From IMG/VR virus record IMGVR_UViG_3300043548_000233, positions 1 through 31,781 of that record: a DNA stretch of 31,781 nucleotides; one strand, written 5' to 3'. Under the pieces are notes generated by a model. It did not search any database and had not been told where the DNA came from. It worked only from the letters and a program-made list of their open reading frames with translations. Numbering within the stretch: the first letter of the stretch is position 1; the number at the start of each line of letters is the position of its first letter. The DNA comes from a virus. Made by a program: the position numbers and the translations under genes. Positions 7,409 through 21,649 of this stretch are shown here, in pieces.

Positions 7409-7726
7409 TTAAATTTCGTCAAAACCAAACGAAGCGCAACGGAACTTAGTGCCATCTTCCATTTCGAGGATGTCACCGACTGACATCGAAGAGCAACGGT
7501 CATAGCACGACACAGGAATATCCGACATGATATTCATAGCTTTGAAAGCCTCTTCCATATCGTTGGTATCAACCGTAGCAACGTGAGTATAATATTGGAA
7601 GTTTTCTGCCTTAAAGGTGCGATCAAACGAACGATCAAAGTATGCCTTAATGCGGTCAGAAGTTTCGCCGTTGTTTACGGCAGCGATTTCAGCGTCGGTC
7701 AGTTGGATTTGGTAAACCTTGATCAT
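7409..7726 (-). CDS. Conserved phage early protein, unknown
   Basis: A 105-residue protein beginning MIKVYQIQLTDAEI. The block YYTHVATVDTNDMEEAF and SVGDILEMEDGTKF, with a C-terminal SFGFDEI, matches a protein family common in cyanophages and T4-like marine phages whose role is unknown. The frame is open into the promoter, but AGAGGAA lies seven bases before ATG 7724-7726 and the predicted transcription start is near 7751, so the longer versions are excluded. Confidence 0.75.
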   Translation of the reverse strand: MIKVYQIQLTDAEIAAVNNGETSDRIKAYFDRSFDRTFKAENFQYYTHVATVDTNDMEEAFKAMNIMSDIPVSCYDRCSSMSVGDILEMEDGTKFRCASFGFDEI

Positions 7727-8431: not shown

Positions 8432-8699
8432 ATACTCTAAACTTTATATCTAGTGGGGTGTCCCTTTGTGGTGCATCCTCGAAGATTTGCTGGTGTGTTT
8501 CTATTATATTCTGCAATCTTTCCTCTGTGGTTGCGCCGAATGTGATTACCATTTTTCCTGGAAATTCCTCGACCTGATAATATGTATCATGCCCATACAG
8601 GATCTCATTTATGAAATTATGATACTTTTCCTGTGTCTTTATGTCAGAAACCTCGGTATATCCACCTTGAATTGCGATTGTTATTTCCCATGCGTGCAT
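8415..8699 (-). CDS. Small protein of the accessory cassette, unknown
   Basis: A 94-residue protein with alternating strands and helices (MHAWEITIAIQGGY; FPGKMVITFGATTEERLQNI). The size and alpha/beta pattern suggest a ferredoxin-like fold, but no family is recognised. GGGAG lies eight bases before the ATG. It sits between the ANL ligase and the oxygenase with overlaps on both sides, so it is probably co-translated with them. Confidence 0.6.
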   Translation of the reverse strand: MHAWEITIAIQGGYTEVSDIKTQEKYHNFINEILYGHDTYYQVEEFPGKMVITFGATTEERLQNIIETHQQIFEDAPQRDTPLDIKFRVYESIN

Positions 8700-10000
8700 C
8701 GTAGATACTCCCGCAATTGATCCATGTTGATTTTCGTGTCAACTGTGAATGTTTCCTTGTCAAGATAATGTATGTCTGCGATTGCAAGATTTGCAAATTT
8801 GCTTGAGTCAACATCTTCCCATAAAACAAGGTGGCGGGTATCATCAAAGATTACAAACGAATACTCGGATGTGATAGATGCGACAAAATTCTCTATAGGA
8901 TCGCGTTCGAGGCGACCACCATAATACCAAACTCCACCTCGTTGTTCTAGATTGTCCTGTATAATACGTGGAGAACTCCACATCGAGCAGGAGATCTCGG
9001 TGAATCCATCGCGTGTTTCCATGCCATAAAAAGCATCTGGTTGAATGCCAAGTCTGGATGGTTCAAACTCATAGTCGGCAGTAATGTGGTTGAGTAACAG
9101 AGGAATACCCGTATCAATTGATCCGTAGTGTGACATAAACTCGATGTTATATTTCTTCACATAGTCAACAAGAACCTTTGTGACAGTGAATCCAGATATG
9201 TTTATCAGAATTTTATTTGGTATTGATCCTCCAACATTATTCAGACTCTCTATCAATTTTGCAACATCAAACATGTTACCGCAAAGTAGACGGTCGATCT
9301 TGTGCGGAATAATTTCCTCTTCGCATATACTCAGAAAAGAAGTCGGATTGGCAAACATATATGCGAAATGATGATTCTTCGATCCCATCAAAGCAGGTAA
9401 CAAGAACGTCAGCAGACTGCTAGCATGGTGCATGTTTCTAGTATGTAAGACACAAGACTCAGGTTCAAACTTGAAGACTTCTATGTTTCTTTTACTGATT
9501 TTATAGAGTTCCTCGTGAGTGAACCAGATTGGTTTTGATCTGTTGGTAGTTCCACTGGTCGATGCTAACAGGAAATGATCAGTTGTTTCACATTCGATAT
9601 CTGACTCGCTATCATCAGAGAAACTTTCATACTCGCTTTCATGTATGACTTGCTTGCTGTATGCCACAACCATCTCGTGATGTAGAGGACTATTCCTGGC
9701 AACATCACATTCCAACGCAAAATCTACAGGACCAAAGATCGCCATCTTAGTCATATGTAGAGTCTGTTCGGTAACAGGTTTGTCAATCACCAGCAGTTTC
9801 ATCCCCATCTCCGCAATGGCAAAGATGGCAGAGACGTGATTGACGTTCATTTCTAAGATAGCGAGGGCAACTAGATCGCCTTTCTTTGCTCCTCTAGATC
9901 TGAACAGATTCTTCCATCTGTTGACTTGTGCGCAAATGTCAGAGTAACTGCTGCCTTCGTACGTAATATCTTTACGAATTATATCTCGTGTGATGTGCAT
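8681..10000 (-). CDS. ANL-superfamily adenylating enzyme (acyl-CoA synthetase-like)
   Basis: A 439-residue protein with the ANL core motifs: A3 STSGTTNRSKP (148-157), A5 HYGSIDTG (291-298), an A7/A8-like YYGGRLERD (359-367) and an A10-like VDTKINMDQLREY whose K423 matches the catalytic lysine. The family activates a carboxylate with ATP to an acyl-AMP and usually transfers it to CoA or a carrier protein. At 439 residues it is compact compared with the usual 500-600, but both ends of the fold seem present. No carrier protein is visible nearby. A phage-borne ANL enzyme is unusual; the neighbours suggest a biosynthetic cassette. Confidence 0.85.
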   Translation of the reverse strand: MHITRDIIRKDITYEGSSYSDICAQVNRWKNLFRSRGAKKGDLVALAILEMNVNHVSAIFAIAEMGMKLLVIDKPVTEQTLHMTKMAIFGPVDFALECDVARNSPLHHEMVVAYSKQVIHESEYESFSDDSESDIECETTDHFLLASTSGTTNRSKPIWFTHEELYKISKRNIEVFKFEPESCVLHTRNMHHASSLLTFLLPALMGSKNHHFAYMFANPTSFLSICEEEIIPHKIDRLLCGNMFDVAKLIESLNNVGGSIPNKILINISGFTVTKVLVDYVKKYNIEFMSHYGSIDTGIPLLLNHITADYEFEPSRLGIQPDAFYGMETRDGFTEISCSMWSSPRIIQDNLEQRGGVWYYGGRLERDPIENFVASITSEYSFVIFDDTRHLVLWEDVDSSKFANLAIADIHYLDKETFTVDTKINMDQLREYLRCTHGK

Positions 10001-10527
10001 AATTCTTCAACCATTTTCTTCAGGTAACTGTTGTTATCGAGCAGTGGTGTTACGCATGGTTTGTCATTAAAATAGTGCTCATACCAAGTCACGTCACAAT
10101 CGTTCCTTCTTATGTATTCGTAAACCAACTTACCATGCAGAATTGTTGGTATTATTACCGTCTGTAGTAACACACCTGCTTCGATCGATGGCGATAATTT
10201 CAACCAATAGTTTGCCAGACTGCGGATACTGTTACCGAAGTTGATACGTAGAAAGAACTTATCTGCTTTCGGTAACATCAGGTGGTTGGAATTGTTACAC
10301 AGCACAACACAATTATCCATATTCTGGATTGCGAGCATATAATTCTTCATGGAGATGCTCTGGTCGTGATCAACCTCATGGTGCGCTTGCTTTAATTTTG
10401 CCCATGATGATCCGAATTCCTTGATATTCATAGGATTCATGTCACCGACATAAGGCAACCCCATCTTCTCGGATAAATCTAAACAATATTTTGTGCCACC
10501 AGATCGTGGCATGGAGATAACTAACAT
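9979..10527 (-). CDS. Sulfotransferase-like P-loop protein
   Basis: A 182-residue protein starting MLVISMPRSGGTKYCLDLSE. The N-terminal beta strand followed by PRSGGT is the 5'-phosphosulfate-binding loop of PAPS-dependent sulfotransferases. The 3'-phosphate site is less clear; FLRINFGNSIRSLANYW contains the expected Arg...Ser spacing. It is short (typical enzymes are 250 or more residues), so it may be a minimal viral form or may act on a different nucleotide donor. Overlaps of 7 and 22 nt tie it to the methyltransferase and ANL genes. Confidence 0.7.
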   Translation of the reverse strand: MLVISMPRSGGTKYCLDLSEKMGLPYVGDMNPMNIKEFGSSWAKLKQAHHEVDHDQSISMKNYMLAIQNMDNCVVLCNNSNHLMLPKADKFFLRINFGNSIRSLANYWLKLSPSIEAGVLLQTVIIPTILHGKLVYEYIRRNDCDVTWYEHYFNDKPCVTPLLDNNSYLKKMVEELCTSHEI

Positions 10528-11195
10528 AGTATTGCCATTGAAGATTTTGTAGGAACAATTATTTTCTTGTTGTGCGTTGCAGCAAATTCATCAACTGCTT
10601 TCATACAATCTGAATGTATGGGTTCATAATCGTGAACAACAAGGATACCATCTGGAAGCAAATACTCGTTCCAGAAACACAATGCTGCCAGCGTATCTAC
10701 ATAATTGTGGTCACCATCATAAAACACCATATTGACCTTGCGATCCCAGTGAGTAAAATATGGACTGAAGAATTCTTTGCGCACGTTTATGTTATCATAA
10801 CCTTCAGTATTTTCACAGAACTTTTGCCACTGCTCTTCTGCAGTTAAAGTGAAGTTATTGACCACATACTTCAGCAATTTAGGTTTGCACATATAATGTA
10901 AGACTTGATCAATGGTATATCCCAGTTCCTTCAGAGTCTGCTCTCGGTACTTATCGTTGACCAGCAGTTGCATCCTACCGAGCATTATGTTTAGACCCTC
11001 AAACTTATCAAAGGTCGTAATGTTCAAATTTTTGTTTTGGTGATGACACGCTTCAGCGATTGCCACAGTGCTTTTTCCAGTGAATGCGCCGATCTCAACG
11101 ATTTCGCCAGTTTCTGGTAACATTGATACTGCTTCGCGTAGTGCTTCCACGTCTCTGCGTGTTATCAATCCAATTATGTGTTTAGCAGGTTTCAT
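10521..11195 (-). CDS. Class I SAM-dependent methyltransferase (Methyltransf_24 type)
   Basis: A 224-residue protein with motif I EIVEIGAFTGKST (31-43), the acidic end of strand 2 (ITTFDKFEG) and FYDGDHNYVDT...LVVHDY, the DGDH pattern of the Methyltransf_24/macrocin-O-methyltransferase-like group, which methylates hydroxyls of small molecules or sugars. The start ATG 11193-11195 overlaps the upstream stop (TAATG); a TTG two codons earlier is the alternative. It lies in the accessory cassette beside sulfotransferase-like and acetyltransferase-like genes. Confidence 0.8.
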   Translation of the reverse strand: MKPAKHIIGLITRRDVEALREAVSMLPETGEIVEIGAFTGKSTVAIAEACHHQNKNLNITTFDKFEGLNIMLGRMQLLVNDKYREQTLKELGYTIDQVLHYMCKPKLLKYVVNNFTLTAEEQWQKFCENTEGYDNINVRKEFFSPYFTHWDRKVNMVFYDGDHNYVDTLAALCFWNEYLLPDGILVVHDYEPIHSDCMKAVDEFAATHNKKIIVPTKSSMAILC

Positions 11196-11818
11196 TAACA
11201 AGAAATCCTGTTTAGATTCATCAATAATTTATTTTCTTCTTCTGCATCAAACAAATGATAGATGATCCATTGCTTTGTTCCTTTGAGGTATATTGGACCA
11301 TATGATTTAAATGGGTATATTTTTCTTCCTGGTTTTGACCACCACTGCCCCATGTCATCTCTATACGAACTTGGGAAATTTTTCGGGTCATTAATTTTAA
11401 TATACCCATCAACAAATCTCAAGTTGTATTCATTCAACGAATAAAAACACCCATCAACTCTGACTGATCGGGCAATATCAAACACCACATCATTCATGTC
11501 CCCCTGAATGTGTGCGCAATGAGCACCAGGAATTGTATAACTGCGAACACCACAACACATCATATTTTCTATCTCAGACAGATAGAACCCTTGCCCGCAA
11601 ATAACATTGCCATCTTCTTTGCATATTACATATCCGTTTTCGGGTCCATCGAATCGTTTTTCATTATATAACAAATAAAGAAATGTGTGTGGTTTATTTT
11701 CCCAATCATCATAAACCATATTTTCCGCAGCAGGTCTGTTATCCTGCTCAGATTTCTTACAAAAATCTATAAGATCTTCTATTGGATAACTGCTGTCAAT
11801 TCTGTGTATTGTGCGCAT
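11195..11818 (-). CDS. Possible GNAT-type acyltransferase
   Basis: A 207-residue protein of unsure family. A central strand-turn-strand (GYVICKEDGNVICGQGFYLS) and CGVRSYTIPGAHCAHIQGDM, then a helix and SLNEYNLRF, recall the layout of GNAT acetyltransferases in some marine phages where RxYxxPxxR precedes the acyl-CoA loop; the usual RxxGxG/A loop is not clearly present. The C-terminal third (WWSKPGRKIYPFKSYGPIYL) looks like substrate-side beta structure. It overlaps the Coq4-like gene by 23 nt. Confidence 0.45.
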   Translation of the reverse strand: MRTIHRIDSSYPIEDLIDFCKKSEQDNRPAAENMVYDDWENKPHTFLYLLYNEKRFDGPENGYVICKEDGNVICGQGFYLSEIENMMCCGVRSYTIPGAHCAHIQGDMNDVVFDIARSVRVDGCFYSLNEYNLRFVDGYIKINDPKNFPSSYRDDMGQWWSKPGRKIYPFKSYGPIYLKGTKQWIIYHLFDAEEENKLLMNLNRISC

Positions 11819-12455
11819 TGATATTAAGTCTCACTCTTGCATCTGTCAAATTTTCACTCAATAATAAATTGTAATCTTCGGCGAGCAAATATTTTGCGCG
11901 TTTGCCAGCAACATATGATTTTAACATTAATTGGATATTATGAATATTTATACCATTTAGTTTCAAAAATCCAACTGCAATTAGTAACCATCCAATAAAT
12001 TTAGTTTGTGCAAAGGAAAATGCTGAAAGGCACATCTCGCCAACATCATCAGGAGGATAACCTGTTAGGGTGTGCCAAATATCATGGGTTTCTATATTTC
12101 TTCTTGCCATCCAACTATATGGATGCCTTGCCTCCATCCATTGTCTATTTTCTTGTTTTCGTTTACTAATCTTAATTAGATTATCATTTTTCGGAAATAA
12201 CTTGTAACATTCTCGCCCAACAGAACCTTCTGGTCTTTGTGATAGAGTGTCAGTGTAGTCAGATATTTCTTCTGAAATATAACAAGCCTCTCCTCCCAGA
12301 TCGCTTTTCAATAATTTAGCATAATTATGCTTCAATGAAGGAGAAACTAAATGACGAGTAAATTGAAAAATTAAGAATGTGTTGGATGGATTTTTCCATA
12401 ATCTCTTATACGAAGCATATGCTTGTTTATAATTAATTTTGTATTTCATTTGCAT
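11796..12455 (-). CDS. Coq4-family protein
   Basis: A 219-residue protein. ARHPYSWMARR is followed by ETHDIWHTLTGYPPDDVGE, which matches exactly the HDxxH-x11-E metal motif of Coq4 (H124, D125, H128, E140). The following FAQTKFIGWLLIAVGFLKL fits the conserved hydrophobic helix of the family. Coq4 acts in ubiquinone synthesis and has been linked to oxidative decarboxylation of the ring C1; bacterial homologues occur in alphaproteobacteria and cyanobacteria. No other ubiquinone gene is visible here, so a different ring or lipid substrate is possible. GGAG precedes the ATG at ten bases; overlaps on both sides. Confidence 0.85.
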   Translation of the reverse strand: MQMKYKINYKQAYASYKRLWKNPSNTFLIFQFTRHLVSPSLKHNYAKLLKSDLGGEACYISEEISDYTDTLSQRPEGSVGRECYKLFPKNDNLIKISKRKQENRQWMEARHPYSWMARRNIETHDIWHTLTGYPPDDVGEMCLSAFSFAQTKFIGWLLIAVGFLKLNGINIHNIQLMLKSYVAGKRAKYLLAEDYNLLLSENLTDARVRLNINAHNTQN

Positions 12456-13194
12456 GGATTATATTCTCCAACTCTAAACAAACTCGCATAACTTCATTTG
12501 GATTTGATAAGAATGCATGAAGATTGCCCGTCTGTTCAAGTTCATAAATATATATGTTATCATCGACACGAAGATAACAAATTTTTGGATCATAATACAA
12601 TTTATACGAAGCAACCAGATCCTCGGAACCCGATAAAGTCTCATCAAATTTGAAGTATTTTGCGCATTTACGGGAATAAAGAATCATACGATTACAATTC
12701 AATTTTTTACGCATGAAGACATTTATCTTAAAAAGATTTTTAGAATGGTCTTCATCCATTATATTTGCAAAAGAAGATGCAACTCTATTACTAAACAATG
12801 TTTTTTCGGTATATTTGTTTCCATTTAATAAAATGTTCATGTTGTTTAATCCAAGAACATCAATTTCCGGATTTGCTTCGATAATCGAATAGAGCGTATC
12901 TATTGCATCAAATTGTAAATAATCATCCGCATCAACTTGCGTTAGATAGTCATAGTTGGTAGTCAAAAAATAGTCCAAAACAGAATTCTTACCCCTCGCA
13001 GGAGTTCCATTGGATTCAGTAACAATGCATTGAATACCATACGATTCTGCTACCAGAGTTGCAATATTCTCATATGATGAGTCGAGAGTATTACATACCA
13101 CAACCACATCTTTGGTTTGGGGCAGAACACTCTCGATACAACGTTTTAATTTTTCAGCATCCCTGGAAGTAAGAATTGCAACCAGAAGTCTCAT
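12433..13194 (-). CDS. Family 2 glycosyltransferase (GT-A fold)
   Basis: A 253-residue protein with an N-terminal VAILTSRDAEKLKRCIESVL (typical GT2 start), DSSYENI, and the nucleotide-sugar/metal motif DADD at 88-91 (QVDADDYLQ). A later SGSEDLVASYKL carries the acidic ED catalytic-base pattern. It probably transfers a sugar from a nucleotide donor to a glycan or small molecule. The start overlaps the FmdB-like gene (ATGA). Base composition in 11.2-13.2 kb is visibly more AT-rich than neighbouring core genes, which hints at recent acquisition. Confidence 0.85.
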   Translation of the reverse strand: MRLLVAILTSRDAEKLKRCIESVLPQTKDVVVVCNTLDSSYENIATLVAESYGIQCIVTESNGTPARGKNSVLDYFLTTNYDYLTQVDADDYLQFDAIDTLYSIIEANPEIDVLGLNNMNILLNGNKYTEKTLFSNRVASSFANIMDEDHSKNLFKINVFMRKKLNCNRMILYSRKCAKYFKFDETLSGSEDLVASYKLYYDPKICYLRVDDNIYIYELEQTGNLHAFLSNPNEVMRVCLELENIIHANEIQN

Positions 13195-13508
13195 CCTATT
13201 AGCGATCCTCCTGCTTTCTTTCTTGCCTTGTCGACAGCATCACGAACCTTAATTGCTTTGTGGTCCTTCTTACCATATTCTTGCGCAAGAGGACTGTTCG
13301 GATTCGCATCTGCGATTTTTGACATAACTTCCTTGAAGTGATCAGGAATCTTACCACCACCATCAGATCCAGGAGCATGCAAAAAGTTTACCTTTTTATA
13401 CATAATCTGGATTTTACCATCGGCAGTGAGTTCCTTCATGTCTTCGTAAGACATTTTTTCTTCCCACTCTTCACCTGTCTCGGTGTTCATCAAATCATAA
13501 ACTGGCAT
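13191..13508 (-). CDS. FmdB-like phage protein lacking zinc cysteines
   Basis: A 105-residue protein starting MPVYDLMNTETGEEWEEKMS. The N-terminus matches phage proteins related to FmdB-type zinc ribbons (PxYDxxNxxTGE), but no cysteines are present, so no zinc is bound. The middle KIPDHFKEVMSKIADANP is the conserved C-terminal part of these proteins. The ATG overlaps the upstream TGA (TGATG). Function unknown; it lies between two sugar-metabolism genes but is probably a core phage gene. Confidence 0.65.
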   Translation of the reverse strand: MPVYDLMNTETGEEWEEKMSYEDMKELTADGKIQIMYKKVNFLHAPGSDGGGKIPDHFKEVMSKIADANPNSPLAQEYGKKDHKAIKVRDAVDKARKKAGGSLIG

Positions 13509-14275
13509 CAATCATCTTTCCGAATCTTATTATTGTATTCGATCGCAGCACGCAGGATCGTCATATCATACTTATAATCTTCTGCGGTCGACAAGAGAGC
13601 AGAGGTGTCCTTGGGAAAGCAATGCCCACCCCAACCACGCTCTGGTGTAATCTCAGTGTGGTTTCTGCCGATTTGCGGACGATAGGCAAGATTGCGACGG
13701 ATCTTCTCGTAATCAGCACCAACCAGATTGGCGAGATCGTAGATATGATTGAAGAAACCAACCTTGACAGCAAGGAATGCGTTCGACGCATACTTTGTCA
13801 GAATTGCTTCCTCTGCTGAACAGGTCAAAACATTGCTGGTAACAGTTTCTTCAAAGAATCGTTTCCAATGAGAAATAGATCTACCAGAAAGAACAACGAA
13901 GTCCTGGTTCTTGTAATCTTCGATCGCATTTTTCGCAGTCAGGAACTCTGGTGAAAATGCAACCATGTGCTCTGGATAATGTTCTTTGATCTGATGCCAT
14001 GCCTCTAGAGAGATCGTGCTCTTGATAAGAGTAGGCATAGTAGCAGGAACATGACTTAGAACCTCGAGAACATTACTGTAATCACATGATCCATCAGCAC
14101 CTTCTGGAGTTGCCACGCAAATGATAACCCCATCTAGTTTATCAAAGTTGACTTCATCCCAAGTGTTCATACCAATACGTGCAGGGTCTATCACTAGAGG
14201 AGTCGCCATTCCAGCAGTCAGAATAGAATTCTGCACTGCTTTCCCAACATAACCCATTCCTGCAATCAGAAACAT
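13508..14275 (-). CDS. UDP-glucose/GDP-mannose dehydrogenase-like protein, short form
   Basis: A 255-residue protein with a Rossmann GMGYVG (6-11), STISLEAW, FSPEFL (107-112), KYASNAFLAVKVGFFN (161-176) and the catalytic cysteine motif GGHCFPKD (C219). These match the NAD-binding and central domains of UDP-glucose/UDP-GlcNAc 6-dehydrogenases. The C-terminal UDP-binding domain of full-length enzymes (about 390-440 residues) is absent; the protein stops about 35 residues after the cysteine. It may be a compact active phage form or act on another substrate. It could supply a uronic sugar to the glycosyltransferase nearby. Confidence 0.8.
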   Translation of the reverse strand: MFLIAGMGYVGKAVQNSILTAGMATPLVIDPARIGMNTWDEVNFDKLDGVIICVATPEGADGSCDYSNVLEVLSHVPATMPTLIKSTISLEAWHQIKEHYPEHMVAFSPEFLTAKNAIEDYKNQDFVVLSGRSISHWKRFFEETVTSNVLTCSAEEAILTKYASNAFLAVKVGFFNHIYDLANLVGADYEKIRRNLAYRPQIGRNHTEITPERGWGGHCFPKDTSALLSTAEDYKYDMTILRAAIEYNNKIRKDD

Positions 14276-18517: not shown

Positions 18518-18592
18518 TGGCGACTCTAGTGGGAATTGAACCCACATCAAACAGTTTAGAATTGCCTGCACTGACCATTGTGCTATAGAGTC
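18518..18592 (-). tRNA. Candidate amber-suppressor tRNA (anticodon CUA)
   Basis: Acceptor GACUCUA/UAGAGUC, D arm GCAC/GUGC with GG in the loop, T arm GUGGG-UUCAAUU-CCCAC, discriminator G, encoded CCA. The anticodon loop reads UUCUAAA, placing U33 then CUA. The anticodon stem is weak (two G-U pairs and an A-C mismatch next to the loop). Aligning the loop one base earlier (UCU, arginine) breaks two stem pairs, so CUA is the better reading. Confidence 0.75.
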
Positions 18593-19261: not shown

Positions 19262-19346
19262 TGGTGGGTCAGTGAGGTATCGATCCTCCCCCGAAAACGG
19301 ATCGGATTTACAGTCCGACTGCCAGAGCCACTGGCTTTACCGACCC
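19262..19346 (-). tRNA. tRNA-Tyr(GUA)
   Basis: Class II with a variable arm around UCCGUUUUCGGGG; anticodon arm UCGGA-CUGUAAA-UCCGA; encoded CCA. The T loop is AUCGAUA, lacking the normal first U. Confidence 0.92.
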
Positions 19347-19511: not shown

Positions 19512-19522
19512 ATAAAGTAGCG

Positions 19523-19633
19523 ACCACCTGCAGTGTGCCTTGATCGAATTACGTCCGGACGCTTCGATCTTCCCAGATAAAGAATACAGTTGCAACTATA
19601 TCTTTACCCTTTCGCGGGTTCAGCAGAGGTGGT
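19523..19633 (-). ncRNA. Structured inter-tRNA element F, multi-hairpin
   Basis: A perfect 7 bp closing stem (ACCACCU/AGGUGGU) encloses three hairpins: ACCC/GGGU, a long near-palindromic arm centred on AGUUGCAACU, and GAUCGAA/UUCGAUC. The layout imitates a cloverleaf of 111 nt, but there is no anticodon or T-loop consensus. Located between tRNA-Ala and tRNA-Leu(UAG). Confidence 0.5.
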
Positions 19634-19640
19634 TCTATAT

Positions 19641-19716: not shown

Positions 19717-19726
19717 AATGAAAAAA

Positions 19727-19827
19727 ACTTATTAGAAGAACACACAACTATCATCCCGACTCGAACGGACTTCAGGTTTAAGGTCACCGGACCTGCCACT
19801 CTATAGTTATGTGTTCATCTAATAAGT
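19727..19827 (-). ncRNA. Element G: tRNA-like core on an extended stem
   Basis: An imperfect helix of about 22 bp (ACUUAUUAGA/UCUAAUAAGU continued by AACACAUAACUAU with AUAGUUGUGUGUU) carries a 3' hairpin with a canonical T loop (UCCG-UUCGAGU-CGGG) and a hairpin AGGUC-CGGU-GACCU. It looks like a tRNA whose D and anticodon arms are reduced and whose acceptor is extended. It directly follows the large GOLLD-like RNA. Confidence 0.5.
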
Positions 19828-20705
19828 CTTAGGACAGGATGAGATTACTCCTGAATTGATGAGTGCCTTTGGACCGTACCGACTTCCTTGCGAGAAGTGT
19901 TAATCCGTTATCCACTAAAGTCCTTTCGGATTCTCTAGTATCACTCAGCGCTGCCTTTTTTGAGGTCTGGCGTGTGACCTATCATGCTACGCTATTCGTC
20001 CTTCGTTCTTCCGTCTGCCTTGCGAGCAGTTCGGTTCCGCTAAGAACCTACGTCTTCACTCCGAACAACCACTTCATCCTTGCGAGAATCCGTGGACCCA
20101 ATTCACTTTCGTGTCAGGTATTAAGCACCTTTCACGTAGCACTGGAGCAGTCTTTCGCTTTTTGCTATGCAAAGTTGGAATTGAACCAACTACCTACATT
20201 TTAGAAGAATGTTGCTCTACCAAATGAGCTATTTGCGAACCTACCAAGAAGTGCTGCTCCAGTTGCTTCGTATCTTGTTAGATACAAAATACAACACTCC
20301 TCATGTCTTTCGTCTTGCGGACTAATCAACCATGCTTCAAGTCTCCCCTCATCGGTTCAACTTTTGCATTGCCATCTTGCCTTTTCACGCGAATGATCAG
20401 ACTCAATGACTATCCGTTAGTATTCAGCACTCATAGGTTTGGTTCGATACAGCTAGACCACCACAGTCTATTAGAACTCACCGACCGGCTCTGTTCGTAT
20501 CCTTTCGGACTTATATCGCCTACTTACTGCCTACTGCCATTCAACTGACAGGGGATGCTTTCGTCGCAGGTTTTACCCAAATACAACGAGTCATCCCTAA
20601 CTCGGACTTGTATAGATAGACCATCACTGGCGCAGTTACGTAGGAGTCCCTGCTTTGGCCACATTACTGTGGTTATCTTAACGACGCTATACCGCCAATC
20701 ACTAT
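19828..20705 (-). ncRNA. Large ornate structured RNA, GOLLD-like, with embedded tRNA
   Basis: About 880 nt with no credible protein gene. It begins at the expected +1 of its own promoter (20712-20740). The minus strand is full of short hairpins with GNRA loops: three hairpins share UCGCAAG loops (near 19890, 20022 and 20082), and UCC-GAAA-GGA-type loops occur repeatedly. A tRNA-Arg(UCU)-like domain near the middle is clamped by a perfect 9 bp helix CUGGAGCAG/CUGCUCCAG. Size, GNRA density, position in a phage tRNA array and the internal tRNA fit the GOLLD class (ROOL is the alternative). A group II intron is less likely: no GUGYG start or domain V is seen. Class assignment is from memory, not a covariance search. 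Confidence 0.65.
20167..20238 (-). tRNA. tRNA-Arg(UCU)-like domain inside the large RNA
   Basis: D arm GCUC/GAGC with GG, anticodon arm ACAUU-CUUCUAA-AAUGU, T arm GUUGG-UUCAAUU-CCAAC. The acceptor is only about 5 bp (GCAAA/UUUGC) and there is no encoded CCA; a further 9 bp helix outside it belongs to the host RNA. It may be released as a tRNA or act as a structural domain. Confidence 0.7.
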
Positions 20706-20711
20706 TTTTCA

Positions 20712-20740
20712 ACTATACCCTAATCTAAGGGAAAAGTAAA
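20712..20740 (-). promoter_or_regulatory. Early-type promoter of the large RNA (family copy 7)
   Basis: TTTACT (20735-20740), 17 bp, TATAGT (20712-20717). The -35 differs from the family by one more base, but spacing and -10 match. No protein start follows, so it serves the structured RNA and the tRNAs after it. Confidence 0.75.
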
Positions 20741-20774: not shown

Positions 20775-20853
20775 TGGTTGCAGAGGTTGGATTTGAACCA
20801 ACGATTTCCGGCTTATGAGACCAGCGAGGACGACCAGACTCCTCTACTCCGCG
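20775..20853 (-). tRNA. Initiator tRNA-fMet(CAU)
   Basis: Acceptor CGCGGAG/CUCUGCA keeps the C1-A72 mismatch that marks bacterial initiator tRNAs. Anticodon loop CUCAUAA, T loop UUCAAAU, encoded CCA, and the D loop (AGUCUGGUCGUC) resembles host initiators. The three G-C pairs of the usual anticodon stem are reduced (GGUCUCAUAAGCC context). Confidence 0.9.
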
Positions 20854-20864
20854 ATAAACTTAAA

Positions 20865-20965
20865 TTGGTTTCCTGTGGGATCCACCCCCACGTACCCCTG
20901 AATGCAGGGGATCTTGTCTAAATGCACGACTTAGGTATATGCGTGTCCCAGATCAAGGAAACCAA
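20865..20965 (-). ncRNA. Element J: class-II tRNA-like RNA
   Basis: A 10 bp perfect closing stem (UUGGUUUCCU/AGGAAACCAA). Inside are GAUCU/AGAUC enclosing an arm CUAAG-UCGUGCA-UUUAG, a hairpin CCCCUG-CAUU-CAGGGG in the place of a long variable arm, and GUGGG-GGUGGAU-CCCAC in the place of a T arm. The stem geometry follows a serine/leucine tRNA, but U33 and the T-loop bases are absent. Confidence 0.5.
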
Positions 20966-20976
20966 TGGGTCATAAT

Positions 20977-21050
20977 TGGTCGGCAGTTTCAGACTTACCG
21001 AGGTCTAGTGGGTTTACGGAGACCGCCATTACGCGTAAAGATATCCAACC
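20977..21050 (-). ncRNA. Element K: tRNA-sized structured RNA
   Basis: 74 nt with a 7 bp closing stem (UGGUUGG/CCGACCA). The interior has UUAC/GUAA, GGUCU/AGACC and a competing CGGUA/UGCCG helix. No anticodon arm or T loop of tRNA type. Confidence 0.4.
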
Positions 21051-21057
21051 ACTTTAA

Positions 21058-21135: not shown

Positions 21136-21160
21136 ATGGATGTCTCACGTCTCGACATCC
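21136..21160 (-). ncRNA. Hairpin in front of tRNA-Asn
   Basis: A perfect 8 bp stem (UGGAUGUC/GACAUCCA) with a 9 nt loop ends three bases before the 5' end of tRNA-Asn. It might guide or block processing there; it lacks a U tract, so it is not a terminator. Confidence 0.5.
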
Positions 21161-21162
21161 AC

Positions 21163-21291
21163 ATCAAACATTCCCGACAGACTCCATACACCATACGGTA
21201 TGCGAGTAGTTTGACTATAAACTTGCCGTTTTGTTTTCAACGTATAATCCGAGGGTATATACGCTGGTTCAGCAGACGGTACTGCTTATAA
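21163..21291 (-). ncRNA. Element L: hairp-rich spacer between tRNA-Thr and tRNA-Asn
   Basis: Contains a 6 bp stem UCAAAC/GUUUGA (21163-21168 with 21209-21214) enclosing CAUACC/GGUGUAUG, then a stem CGUAUA/UAUACG (21241-21263) and AGCAG-UACCGU-CUGCU (21271-21286). No coding sequence. Role unknown. Confidence 0.4.
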
Positions 21292-21370: not shown

Positions 21371-21528
21371 ACTTATTAAATCTGCTCTGCTCATGAGCGA
21401 ATTTCGGAGTCGGGTGCTTCCCGTCCTAAACCATTGCTAGAGTTATTTCAGACTAGGTCTGATGGTCCATCCTAATCATAGTGCATGCGTCCATACACGC
21501 TACCCCCAGCAGAGCAGATTTAATAAGT
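21371..21528 (-). ncRNA. Element N: structured RNA on a perfect 21 bp stem
   Basis: Positions 21371-21391 and 21508-21528 are exact inverted complements (21 bp, no mismatch), starting ACUUAUUAAA. The 116 nt interior folds into smaller helices, including ACCAU/AUGGU around UCAGAC-CUA-GUCUGA, and CGGG/CCCG. A perfect helix this long is a likely RNase III substrate. It precedes tRNA-Thr. Confidence 0.6.
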
Positions 21529-21531
21529 TTC

Positions 21532-21649
21532 AGGCGAGTCGAGAGGCTGTTGTCCACTCATCTTCCTTTCGGACAGACTTCACGAGTTGCGATTCAACGC
21601 TAGGCAGCAATTCTCTCTAAGCACGATGGCGCCAGCGGCACTCTCGCCT
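21532..21649 (-). ncRNA. Element O: first structured RNA of the array
   Basis: A perfect 7 bp stem AGGCGAG/CUCGCCU, extendable by GUUU/GAAAC pairs, encloses GAGAG/CUCUC plus GCUG/CAGC (one bulge), GUUG-AAUCG-CAAC and a UCC-GAAA-GGA GNRA hairpin. It is the first RNA made from the array promoter; about 35 nt of leader precede it. Confidence 0.5.

What the first reader, a model, noticed from the sequence alone, without database searches (positions are those of the whole stretch)
19828..20705. GOLLD-like giant RNA with its own promoter and an embedded tRNA-Arg
About 880 nt in a tRNA array contain no plausible gene but many GNRA-loop hairpins; the same UCGCAAG loop is used three times. A tRNA-Arg(UCU)-like cloverleaf lies inside, closed by a 9 bp helix. 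It starts at the +1 of a promoter of the phage's early family. Known giant RNAs in phages (GOLLD, ROOL) lie near tRNAs; one with this host range and an embedded tRNA under an early promoter would be a valuable new example.
Basis: partly seen in the sequence, partly recalled or inferred. Interest (0 to 1): 0.88.

Follow-up and report, generated by a model that had tools for sequence, protein, structure and literature searches.

The report
GOLLD RNA with hypervariable tRNA-like bait
This phage makes a giant "GOLLD" RNA, a family known to assemble into hollow RNA cages, and the tRNA buried in it cannot work as an ordinary tRNA, while in relatives its anticodon loop is swapped again and again as if it were bait for something in the host.

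Summary
Rfam RF02032 matches at 187.5 bits (cut-off 150), end to end, and 36 homologues covary across the whole 870 nt, including the 5' domain outside the Rfam model. An embedded tRNA in the GOLLD linker is already in the literature, so that alone is a new member of a known kind. What I did not find reported is how this tRNA behaves. It sits at the same place in 63 of 84 viral GOLLDs. Its cloverleaf covaries, so it is under selection, but it cannot be an ordinary tRNA: no encoded CCA (62 of 63), acceptor end mismatched (47 of 51), sometimes an 8-nt loop. Its anticodon loop is a hot spot: among pairs with near-identical bodies the anticodon differs in 24 of 45, against 3 of 190 for ordinary tRNAs of the same phages. 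One relative carries the tRNA circularly permuted. Five of seven tRNA-less linkers still keep an anticodon-type hairpin. I infer that the anticodon arm, probably facing the cage interior, is a ligand or bait for a host factor that reads anticodon loops, with anticodon nucleases first on the list. That mechanism is untested.

The parts
20712..20740 (-). sigma-70-type promoter TTTACT-17 nt-TATAGT upstream of GOLLD
   Evidence: consensus scan 9/12; close matches 13-15 nt before the GOLLD 5' end in several homologues; score >=10/12 in 8/46 vs 2.7% of shuffles, not universal
19836..20705 (-). GOLLD RNA, about 870 nt; 5' end inferred from promoter and alignment, 3' end from the Rfam model
   Evidence: RF02032 187.5 bits; 202 predicted pairs, 153 with double changes in 36 homologues
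20303..20705 (-). GOLLD 5' domain (outside the Rfam model)
   Evidence: alignment A1 and RNAalifold
19836..20302 (-). GOLLD 3' domain plus linker (the Rfam model region)
   Evidence: alignment, model positions 1-416
20253..20261 (-). 5' strand of the 9-bp helix that closes the tRNA-bearing loop (pairs with about 20143-20152)
   Evidence: columns 552-560 with 714-723 of A1, covarying
20164..20239 (-). embedded tRNA-like domain, Arg(UCU)-type cloverleaf without CCA; acceptor pairs 1-72 and 2-71 unpaired
   Evidence: ARAGORN, RF00005 58.3 bits, cloverleaf covariation 16 of 19 pairs in 29 relatives, acceptor statistics
20201..20207 (-). anticodon loop CTTCTAA, the hypervariable element (nearest relative L035 has CTCTTAA)
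20079..20085 (-). UCGCAAG GNRA hairpin loop, copy 1
20019..20025 (-). UCGCAAG GNRA hairpin loop, copy 2
19887..19893 (-). UCGCAAG GNRA hairpin loop, copy 3
19721..19828 (-). long terminator-like hairpin directly after GOLLD, followed by seven T; member of the GATGA/TCTTC hairpin family
   Evidence: dG -41.9 kcal/mol, z -6.3; family of 53 hairpins, 28 of them directly after GOLLD
20775..20853 (-). tRNA-Met(CAU) directly upstream of GOLLD
   Evidence: ARAGORN

Best explanation
Shown: the locus is a GOLLD RNA of a tailed phage, lying in a 20-plus tRNA array, with a tRNA-like domain in the GOLLD linker. Shown by comparison: the domain keeps the tRNA fold but has lost the acceptor end, and its anticodon loop is replaced far more often than the rest of the RNA or than real tRNA genes. 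Taken from the published structure of another GOLLD: monomers form a 14-mer cage whose linkers point inside. Inferred: each cage therefore holds about 14 copies of one anticodon stem-loop, a non-decoding ligand for a host factor that recognises anticodon stem-loops. The most likely such factors are the anticodon nucleases of phage defence and toxin-antitoxin systems, which would bind or cut this bait instead of the translating tRNA pool. The loop turns over because hosts differ in which anticodon loop their factor recognises. Likelihood: GOLLD identity about 0.97; non-decoding domain about 0.9; loop under diversifying selection about 0.75; bait or ligand for an anticodon-reading host factor about 0.4; a nuclease specifically about 0.3.
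For: GOLLD identity. Linker tRNA-like domain in 63 of 84 viral GOLLDs. Cloverleaf selected: 97.6% of cells paired, 16 of 19 pairs with double changes, 0 of 500 shuffles. Non-decoding: encoded CCA in 1 of 63 vs 726 of 747 array tRNAs; 1-72 or 2-71 unpaired in 47 of 51 vs 41 of 528; 8-nt loops in 6 of 46 vs 0 of 747. Hypervariable loop: among pairs with bodies >=90% identical the anticodon differs in 24 of 45 vs 3 of 190 for array tRNAs; 11 independent close pairs give 19 of 80 loop positions edited vs 292 of 8176 in the GOLLD outside the tRNA-like domain; L055/L046 and L004/L013 are 98-100% identical over the longest stretches around yet differ in the loop. At least 32 loop changes among 54 tips of a tree built without the linker, with the same loops regained. 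The U-turn base U33 is kept in 48 of 51, as a neutral loop would not be expected to do. Anticodon arm is the part retained: 5-bp/7-nt U33 hairpins in 5 of 7 tRNA-less linkers of this clade (8 of 19 overall vs 1.0 expected); circularly permuted tRNA in L081. No compensating change elsewhere in cis in L055/L046. Cage and interior linker: PMC12286853. Anticodon loops as a phage-host battleground: PMC10264068.
Against: No target is identified and nothing was measured. Embedded loops are not clearly closer to real tRNA loops than column-shuffled loops (p 0.26 exact, 0.06 within one mismatch), and anticodons such as AUG and AUU and 8-nt loops are poor mimics. The 3' tail of the tRNA-like domain is about as variable as the loop, so part of the variation may be relaxed constraint. 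GOLLD is dispensable in one Lactobacillus prophage (cited in PMC7567579). Some GOLLDs have no tRNA-like domain. The cage itself was not shown for this RNA.
Confidence: 0.42

Rival explanations
1. Escape rather than bait: the tRNA fold is kept for another reason (cage assembly, stability, RNase P or ribosome contact), and the exposed anticodon loop mutates only to avoid being cut by host anticodon nucleases that would nick GOLLD.
For: Phage tRNAs are reported to evade tRNases by anticodon-loop mutations (PMC10264068). Non-natural loops (AUG, AUU, 8-nt) look like departures from recognised sequences.
Against: Linkers that lost the rest of the tRNA still keep an anticodon-type hairpin, so the arm seems wanted rather than tolerated. 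Lys- and Arg-type loops are regained repeatedly.
Confidence: 0.2
2. Antisense or kissing partner in trans: the 7-8 nt U-turn loop pairs with a phage or host RNA (mRNA, tRNA, rRNA) and changes with that partner.
For: No compensating change in cis when the loop changes, so any pairing partner is in trans; the U-turn is conserved.
Against: No partner sequence identified; loops fall into a few recurring tRNA-like kinds; the domain keeps the whole tRNA fold, which a kissing loop would not need.
Confidence: 0.13
3. Ribosome or codon reader: the anticodon arm binds the decoding site of ribosomes, loading or blocking ribosomes at chosen codons.
For: Ribosomes are reported in GOLLD pull-downs (PMC12286853). 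Loops keep U33, and Lys(AAG/AAA) and Arg(AGA)-type anticodons are common (25 of 51 vs 30 of 546 array tRNAs, not phylogenetically corrected).
Against: 8-nt loops and unused anticodons; the linker points into the closed interior of the cage; no codon-specific data.
Confidence: 0.1
4. Ordinary decoding tRNA that happens to be transcribed inside GOLLD and is cut out by RNase P and given CCA by the host enzyme.
For: In the window it is the only Arg tRNA found in the array; the CCA end can be added after transcription; L129 has a full acceptor stem and ends in CCA.
Against: Acceptor pairs 1-72 or 2-71 unpaired in 47 of 51; 8-nt loops; anticodon also present in the array in 11 of 37 loci; the anticodon differs in 24 of 45 pairs of near-identical bodies. 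A pseudo-tRNA in a mycobacterial GOLLD was not expressed separately (PMC6582537).
Confidence: 0.07
5. Neutral drift: a decaying tRNA in an unconstrained linker.
For: The tail of the domain is equally variable; some relatives have lost the tRNA-like domain.
Against: Strong covariation of the cloverleaf; block-wise loop swaps in pairs 98-100% identical around; U33 kept; anticodon-type hairpins persist after loss.
Confidence: 0.08

Closest known systems
GOLLD RNA (Rfam RF02032)
   Same: Full-length model match above the gathering score, 5' plus 3' domains, about 870 nt, phage tRNA array, directly downstream of a tRNA-Met as described for env-38, tRNA in the linker
   Different: The published text I could read says only that tRNAs are sometimes present in the linker; the lost acceptor end, swapped anticodon loops, a permuted tRNA and anticodon-arm-only linkers are not described there
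ROOL RNA
   Same: Giant phage RNA near tRNAs that forms a cage
   Different: No match to the ROOL model here
Pseudo-tRNA inside the GOLLD of Mycobacterium aubagnense (PMC6582537)
   Same: Non-functional tRNA inside a GOLLD gene within a tRNA cluster
   Different: A single case; no report of anticodon turnover
Phage tRNAs that evade anticodon nucleases (PMC10264068) or counter retron Eco7 (PMC11555353)
   Same: Anticodon loop as the point of phage-host conflict
   Different: Those are free, functional replacement tRNAs; here the arm is part of a giant RNA and cannot be charged in the ordinary way
GOLLD of phages DSS3_MAL1 and Phaeobacter phage MD18
   Same: Same architecture with an embedded Arg(UCU)-type domain
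   Different: Loop CGTCTAA instead of CTTCTAA; followed by a tmRNA gene (permuted and alpha-tmRNA models both match)

Membership tests
GOLLD RNA (RF02032) | Covariance model score above the curated cut-off | tested here: met
   187.5 vs 150 bits, model 1-416
GOLLD RNA (RF02032) | Structured 5' domain in addition to the conserved 3' domain, about 800 nt in all | tested here: met
   Covarying pairs over the whole 870 nt in 36 homologues
GOLLD RNA (RF02032) | Encoded in phage or prophage, often near tRNAs | tested here: met
   24 tRNA calls including the embedded one; ribonucleotide reductase and other phage families; IMG/VR virus record
GOLLD RNA (RF02032) | Homo-oligomeric cage with interior linker | not testable with these tools
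   Known for env-38 (PMC12286853); needs cryo-EM
GOLLD RNA (RF02032) | Transcribed, rising during lysis | not testable with these tools
   Needs RNA-seq; promoter only predicted
ROOL RNA | Match to the ROOL covariance model | tested here: not met
   Absent from the Rfam results at gathering threshold and at E up to 1
functional tRNA-Arg gene | Cloverleaf with covarying stems | tested here: met
functional tRNA-Arg gene | Paired 7-bp acceptor stem and CCA end | tested here: not met
   Window: 1-72 and 2-71 unpaired, no CCA; group: 47 of 51 and 62 of 63
functional tRNA-Arg gene | Conserved anticodon among near-identical copies | tested here: not met
   24 of 45 near-identical pairs differ; nearest relative of the window has a Lys loop
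anticodon-nuclease decoy | Loop sequence matches real tRNA anticodon loops more than chance | tested here: inconclusive
   p 0.26 exact, 0.06 with one mismatch
anticodon-nuclease decoy | Binds or is cut by such a nuclease | not testable with these tools
   needs biochemistry

The most novel reading that the evidence does not exclude
GOLLD cages of this phage clade are exchangeable bait traps: each holds about 14 copies of a tRNA-shaped, uncharged domain whose anticodon stem-loop is swapped to match the anticodon-reading defence enzyme of the current host, which would give the first function for a GOLLD RNA.
Probability: 0.25. Interest if true: 0.93.

Novelty: new variant of a known kind. Interest (0 to 1): 0.72.

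Why it matters
GOLLD RNAs have been known since 2009 and their cage structure was published in 2025, yet what they do, and what the cage interior is for, is unknown. A conserved fold with one hypervariable 7-nt loop is the signature of a recognition site in conflict with something, and it points at a definite class of partners. Natural phage pairs that differ little apart from this loop (L055/L046, L004/L013) make the question directly testable.

Tried and rejected
ROOL: no match. Hidden gene: no Pfam match to the ORFs in the region. Cis-pairing partner of the loop: close pairs show loop changes without compensating changes elsewhere. Embedded anticodon filling a gap in the array: not a rule, 26 absent vs 11 present. 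Loops copied from array tRNAs: most distinct embedded loops do not occur in 747 array tRNAs, and resemblance is not significant against column shuffles. Lys/Arg(UCU) enrichment, p 2e-15, is not phylogenetically independent, so I give it little weight. The genome contigs pattern scan returned only chance matches. The broad GAAAGGTGNTTAAYNCC viral scan was largely chance too; only loci confirmed by the nhmmer profile were used. Two attempts to count the hairpin family used a wrong motif and were corrected. The last three collection scans gave few new loci. The original 2009 GOLLD paper and the 2020 mycobacterial GOLLD paper were not held, so priority on the linker tRNA details could not be fully checked.

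Full report
Observation. The minus strand of 19836-20302 matches Rfam GOLLD RF02032 over the whole model with 187.5 bits (cut-off 150); ROOL does not match. The window is an entire IMG/VR virus record of 31,781 bases with phage genes: ribonucleotide reductase large and small subunits, an exonuclease and a clamp-loader-like ATPase. It has 24 tRNA calls including the embedded one. In homologues a close promoter match is found in a minority only (score >=10 of 12 in 8 of 46 against 2.7% of shuffles), so GOLLD is probably often co-transcribed with the array (inference). The three UCGCAAG loops are conserved GNRA hairpins, and the 9-bp helix closing the tRNA-bearing loop covaries.

Homologues. Among cultured phages only DSS3_MAL1 and MD18 share the GOLLD sequence beyond tRNA-sized matches in the listed rows, and both carry an embedded Arg(UCU)-type tRNA. 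Pattern scans of IMG/VR filtered by an nhmmer profile gave 84, later 91, GOLLDs including the window. In the full-length alignment of 36 of them RNAalifold predicts 202 pairs, 153 with changes on both sides in at least one sequence. The whole 870 nt is thus a conserved structured RNA.

The embedded tRNA. It occupies the same linker site in 63 of 84 GOLLDs. Its cloverleaf is under selection: 97.6% of cells paired, 16 of 19 pairs with double changes, 0 of 500 shuffles as good. But it is not an ordinary tRNA. Encoded CCA is absent in 62 of 63, against 21 of 747 array tRNAs of the same loci. Pair 1-72 or 2-71 is open in 47 of 51 distinct copies, against 41 of 528. 8-nt anticodon loops occur in 6 of 46, against 0 of 747. 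In the window itself the 5' strand TCGCAAA faces TTTGCAT, so pairs 1-72 and 2-71 are open, and the next bases are AGCA, not CCA (sequence).

Hypervariable anticodon loop. Among pairs of embedded copies with bodies at least 90% identical the anticodon differs in 24 of 45; among array tRNAs in 3 of 190. Pairs are not independent, so I also took 11 non-overlapping close pairs: 19 of 80 loop positions are edited, against 292 of 8176 in the GOLLD outside the tRNA-like domain. In a scan of 874 seven-base windows the loop region is one of the top two hot spots; the other is the 3' tail of the tRNA-like domain, a caution that some variation may be relaxed constraint. The clearest cases are L055/L046 (1068 of 1073 aligned bases identical over 1.08 kb; loop ATTTTGA vs ATTGATAA) and L004/L013 (936 of 952; 5 of 16 substitutions inside the loop, CTCTTAA vs ATTGAAG). 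Aligned flanks of these loci are mostly 98-100% identical. On a tree built without the linker, 54 tips need at least 32 loop changes, and CTCTTAA and CTTCTAA arise or are lost at least 9 and 5 times on well-supported branches. The window's nearest relative, L035, has the Lys-type loop CTCTTAA where the window has CTTCTAA. Identical loops recur in contigs from different samples, which argues against assembly error.

What is kept. U33, the U-turn base, is present in 48 of 51. Five of seven GOLLDs of this clade without a recognisable tRNA still have a 5-bp, 7-nt-loop hairpin with U33 in the linker (TTTGGGT, TTTTGGT, TTTTGGA, CTGAAAC, CTCAAAC); over all 19 linkers without an ARAGORN one search have one, against 1.0 expected, though one of these is an ordinary T-arm in a truncated copy and two are an unrecognised and a permuted tRNA. 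In L081 the linker holds a circularly permuted tRNA: the 3' half ending in ACCA, nine bases, then the 5' half; rejoined in the usual order ARAGORN calls a complete tRNA with loop ATGATAA. I read this as selection for a tRNA-shaped, above all anticodon-arm-shaped, display.

Mechanism. The published GOLLD env-38 structure is a 14-mer cage with the linker inside, and its authors note that phage tRNAs are sometimes present in the linker and that ribosomes were found in pull-downs (PMC12286853). If this GOLLD assembles likewise, each cage holds about 14 copies of one anticodon arm. When the loop changes in the closest pair nothing complementary changes in the same RNA, so the partner is in trans. 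Host anticodon nucleases read this part of a tRNA, and phage tRNAs are reported to change there in response (PMC10264068). I therefore favour a bait or ligand for an anticodon-reading host factor. Against it, the loops are not significantly closer to real tRNA loops than column-shuffled ones, and some anticodons (AUG, AUU) and the 8-nt loops are poor mimics. Escape from such nucleases, antisense pairing in trans and codon-specific ribosome binding remain open. Decoding and neutral drift are unlikely.

Comparison and novelty. As a GOLLD this is a new member of a known family. The lost acceptor end, the anticodon-loop turnover, the anticodon-arm-only linkers and the permuted tRNA are not described in the papers I could read; 'anticodon' does not occur in the main text of the 2025 structure paper. 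Two primary GOLLD papers were not available, so a mention there cannot be excluded. I therefore call it a new variant of a known kind.

Noticed in passing
window 19728-19826 (-) and 35 loci (e.g. L081, L131, L135, L137, L139, L004): Family of long hairpins with base stem / GATGA-TCTTC (one T-T mismatch) / upper stem and a highly variable top; base stems differ but stay paired (CTATTTT/AAAATAG, CTTATTA/TAATAAG, CTGTTTA/TAAACAG, ATCGTTA/TAACGAT). 53 found, 28 directly after GOLLD, others elsewhere in the same loci.
   Followed up: partly
L081, linker just upstream of the GOLLD 3' domain (oriented position about 7600-7710): Circularly permuted tRNA inside the GOLLD linker; rejoined halves give a complete tRNA ending in ACCA with loop ATGATAA.
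   Followed up: partly
window 21375-21560 (-): About 165-nt structured spacer flanked by AACTTATTAAATCTGCTCTGC / GCAGAGCAGATTTAATAAGTT; homologues in five other loci, in L064 directly after GOLLD. No Rfam match.
   Followed up: partly
window 21140-21290, 20860-21052 and 19515-19640 (-): Conserved spacers between tRNAs (11, 6 and 6 other loci respectively), two of them holding the motif CTGCTGAACC; likely further small RNAs of the array.
   Followed up: partly
L002 7941-8375 and L003 8702-9117: tmRNA gene directly downstream of GOLLD in phages DSS3_MAL1 and MD18; both the permuted-tmRNA and alpha-tmRNA models match.
   Followed up: no
window 18518-18592 (-): tRNA with anticodon CUA (amber suppressor type, called Pyl by ARAGORN); CUA tRNAs also occur in arrays of several related loci.
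   Followed up: no
window 19264-19345 (-): A tRNA-Tyr(GUA)-like sequence not called by ARAGORN lies between the Asp and Phe tRNAs (read).
   Followed up: no
window 8681-14275 (-): AMP-binding enzyme, glycosyltransferase and a UDP-glucose/GDP-mannose dehydrogenase-like gene, suggesting surface-sugar synthesis genes next to the tRNA array.
   Followed up: no
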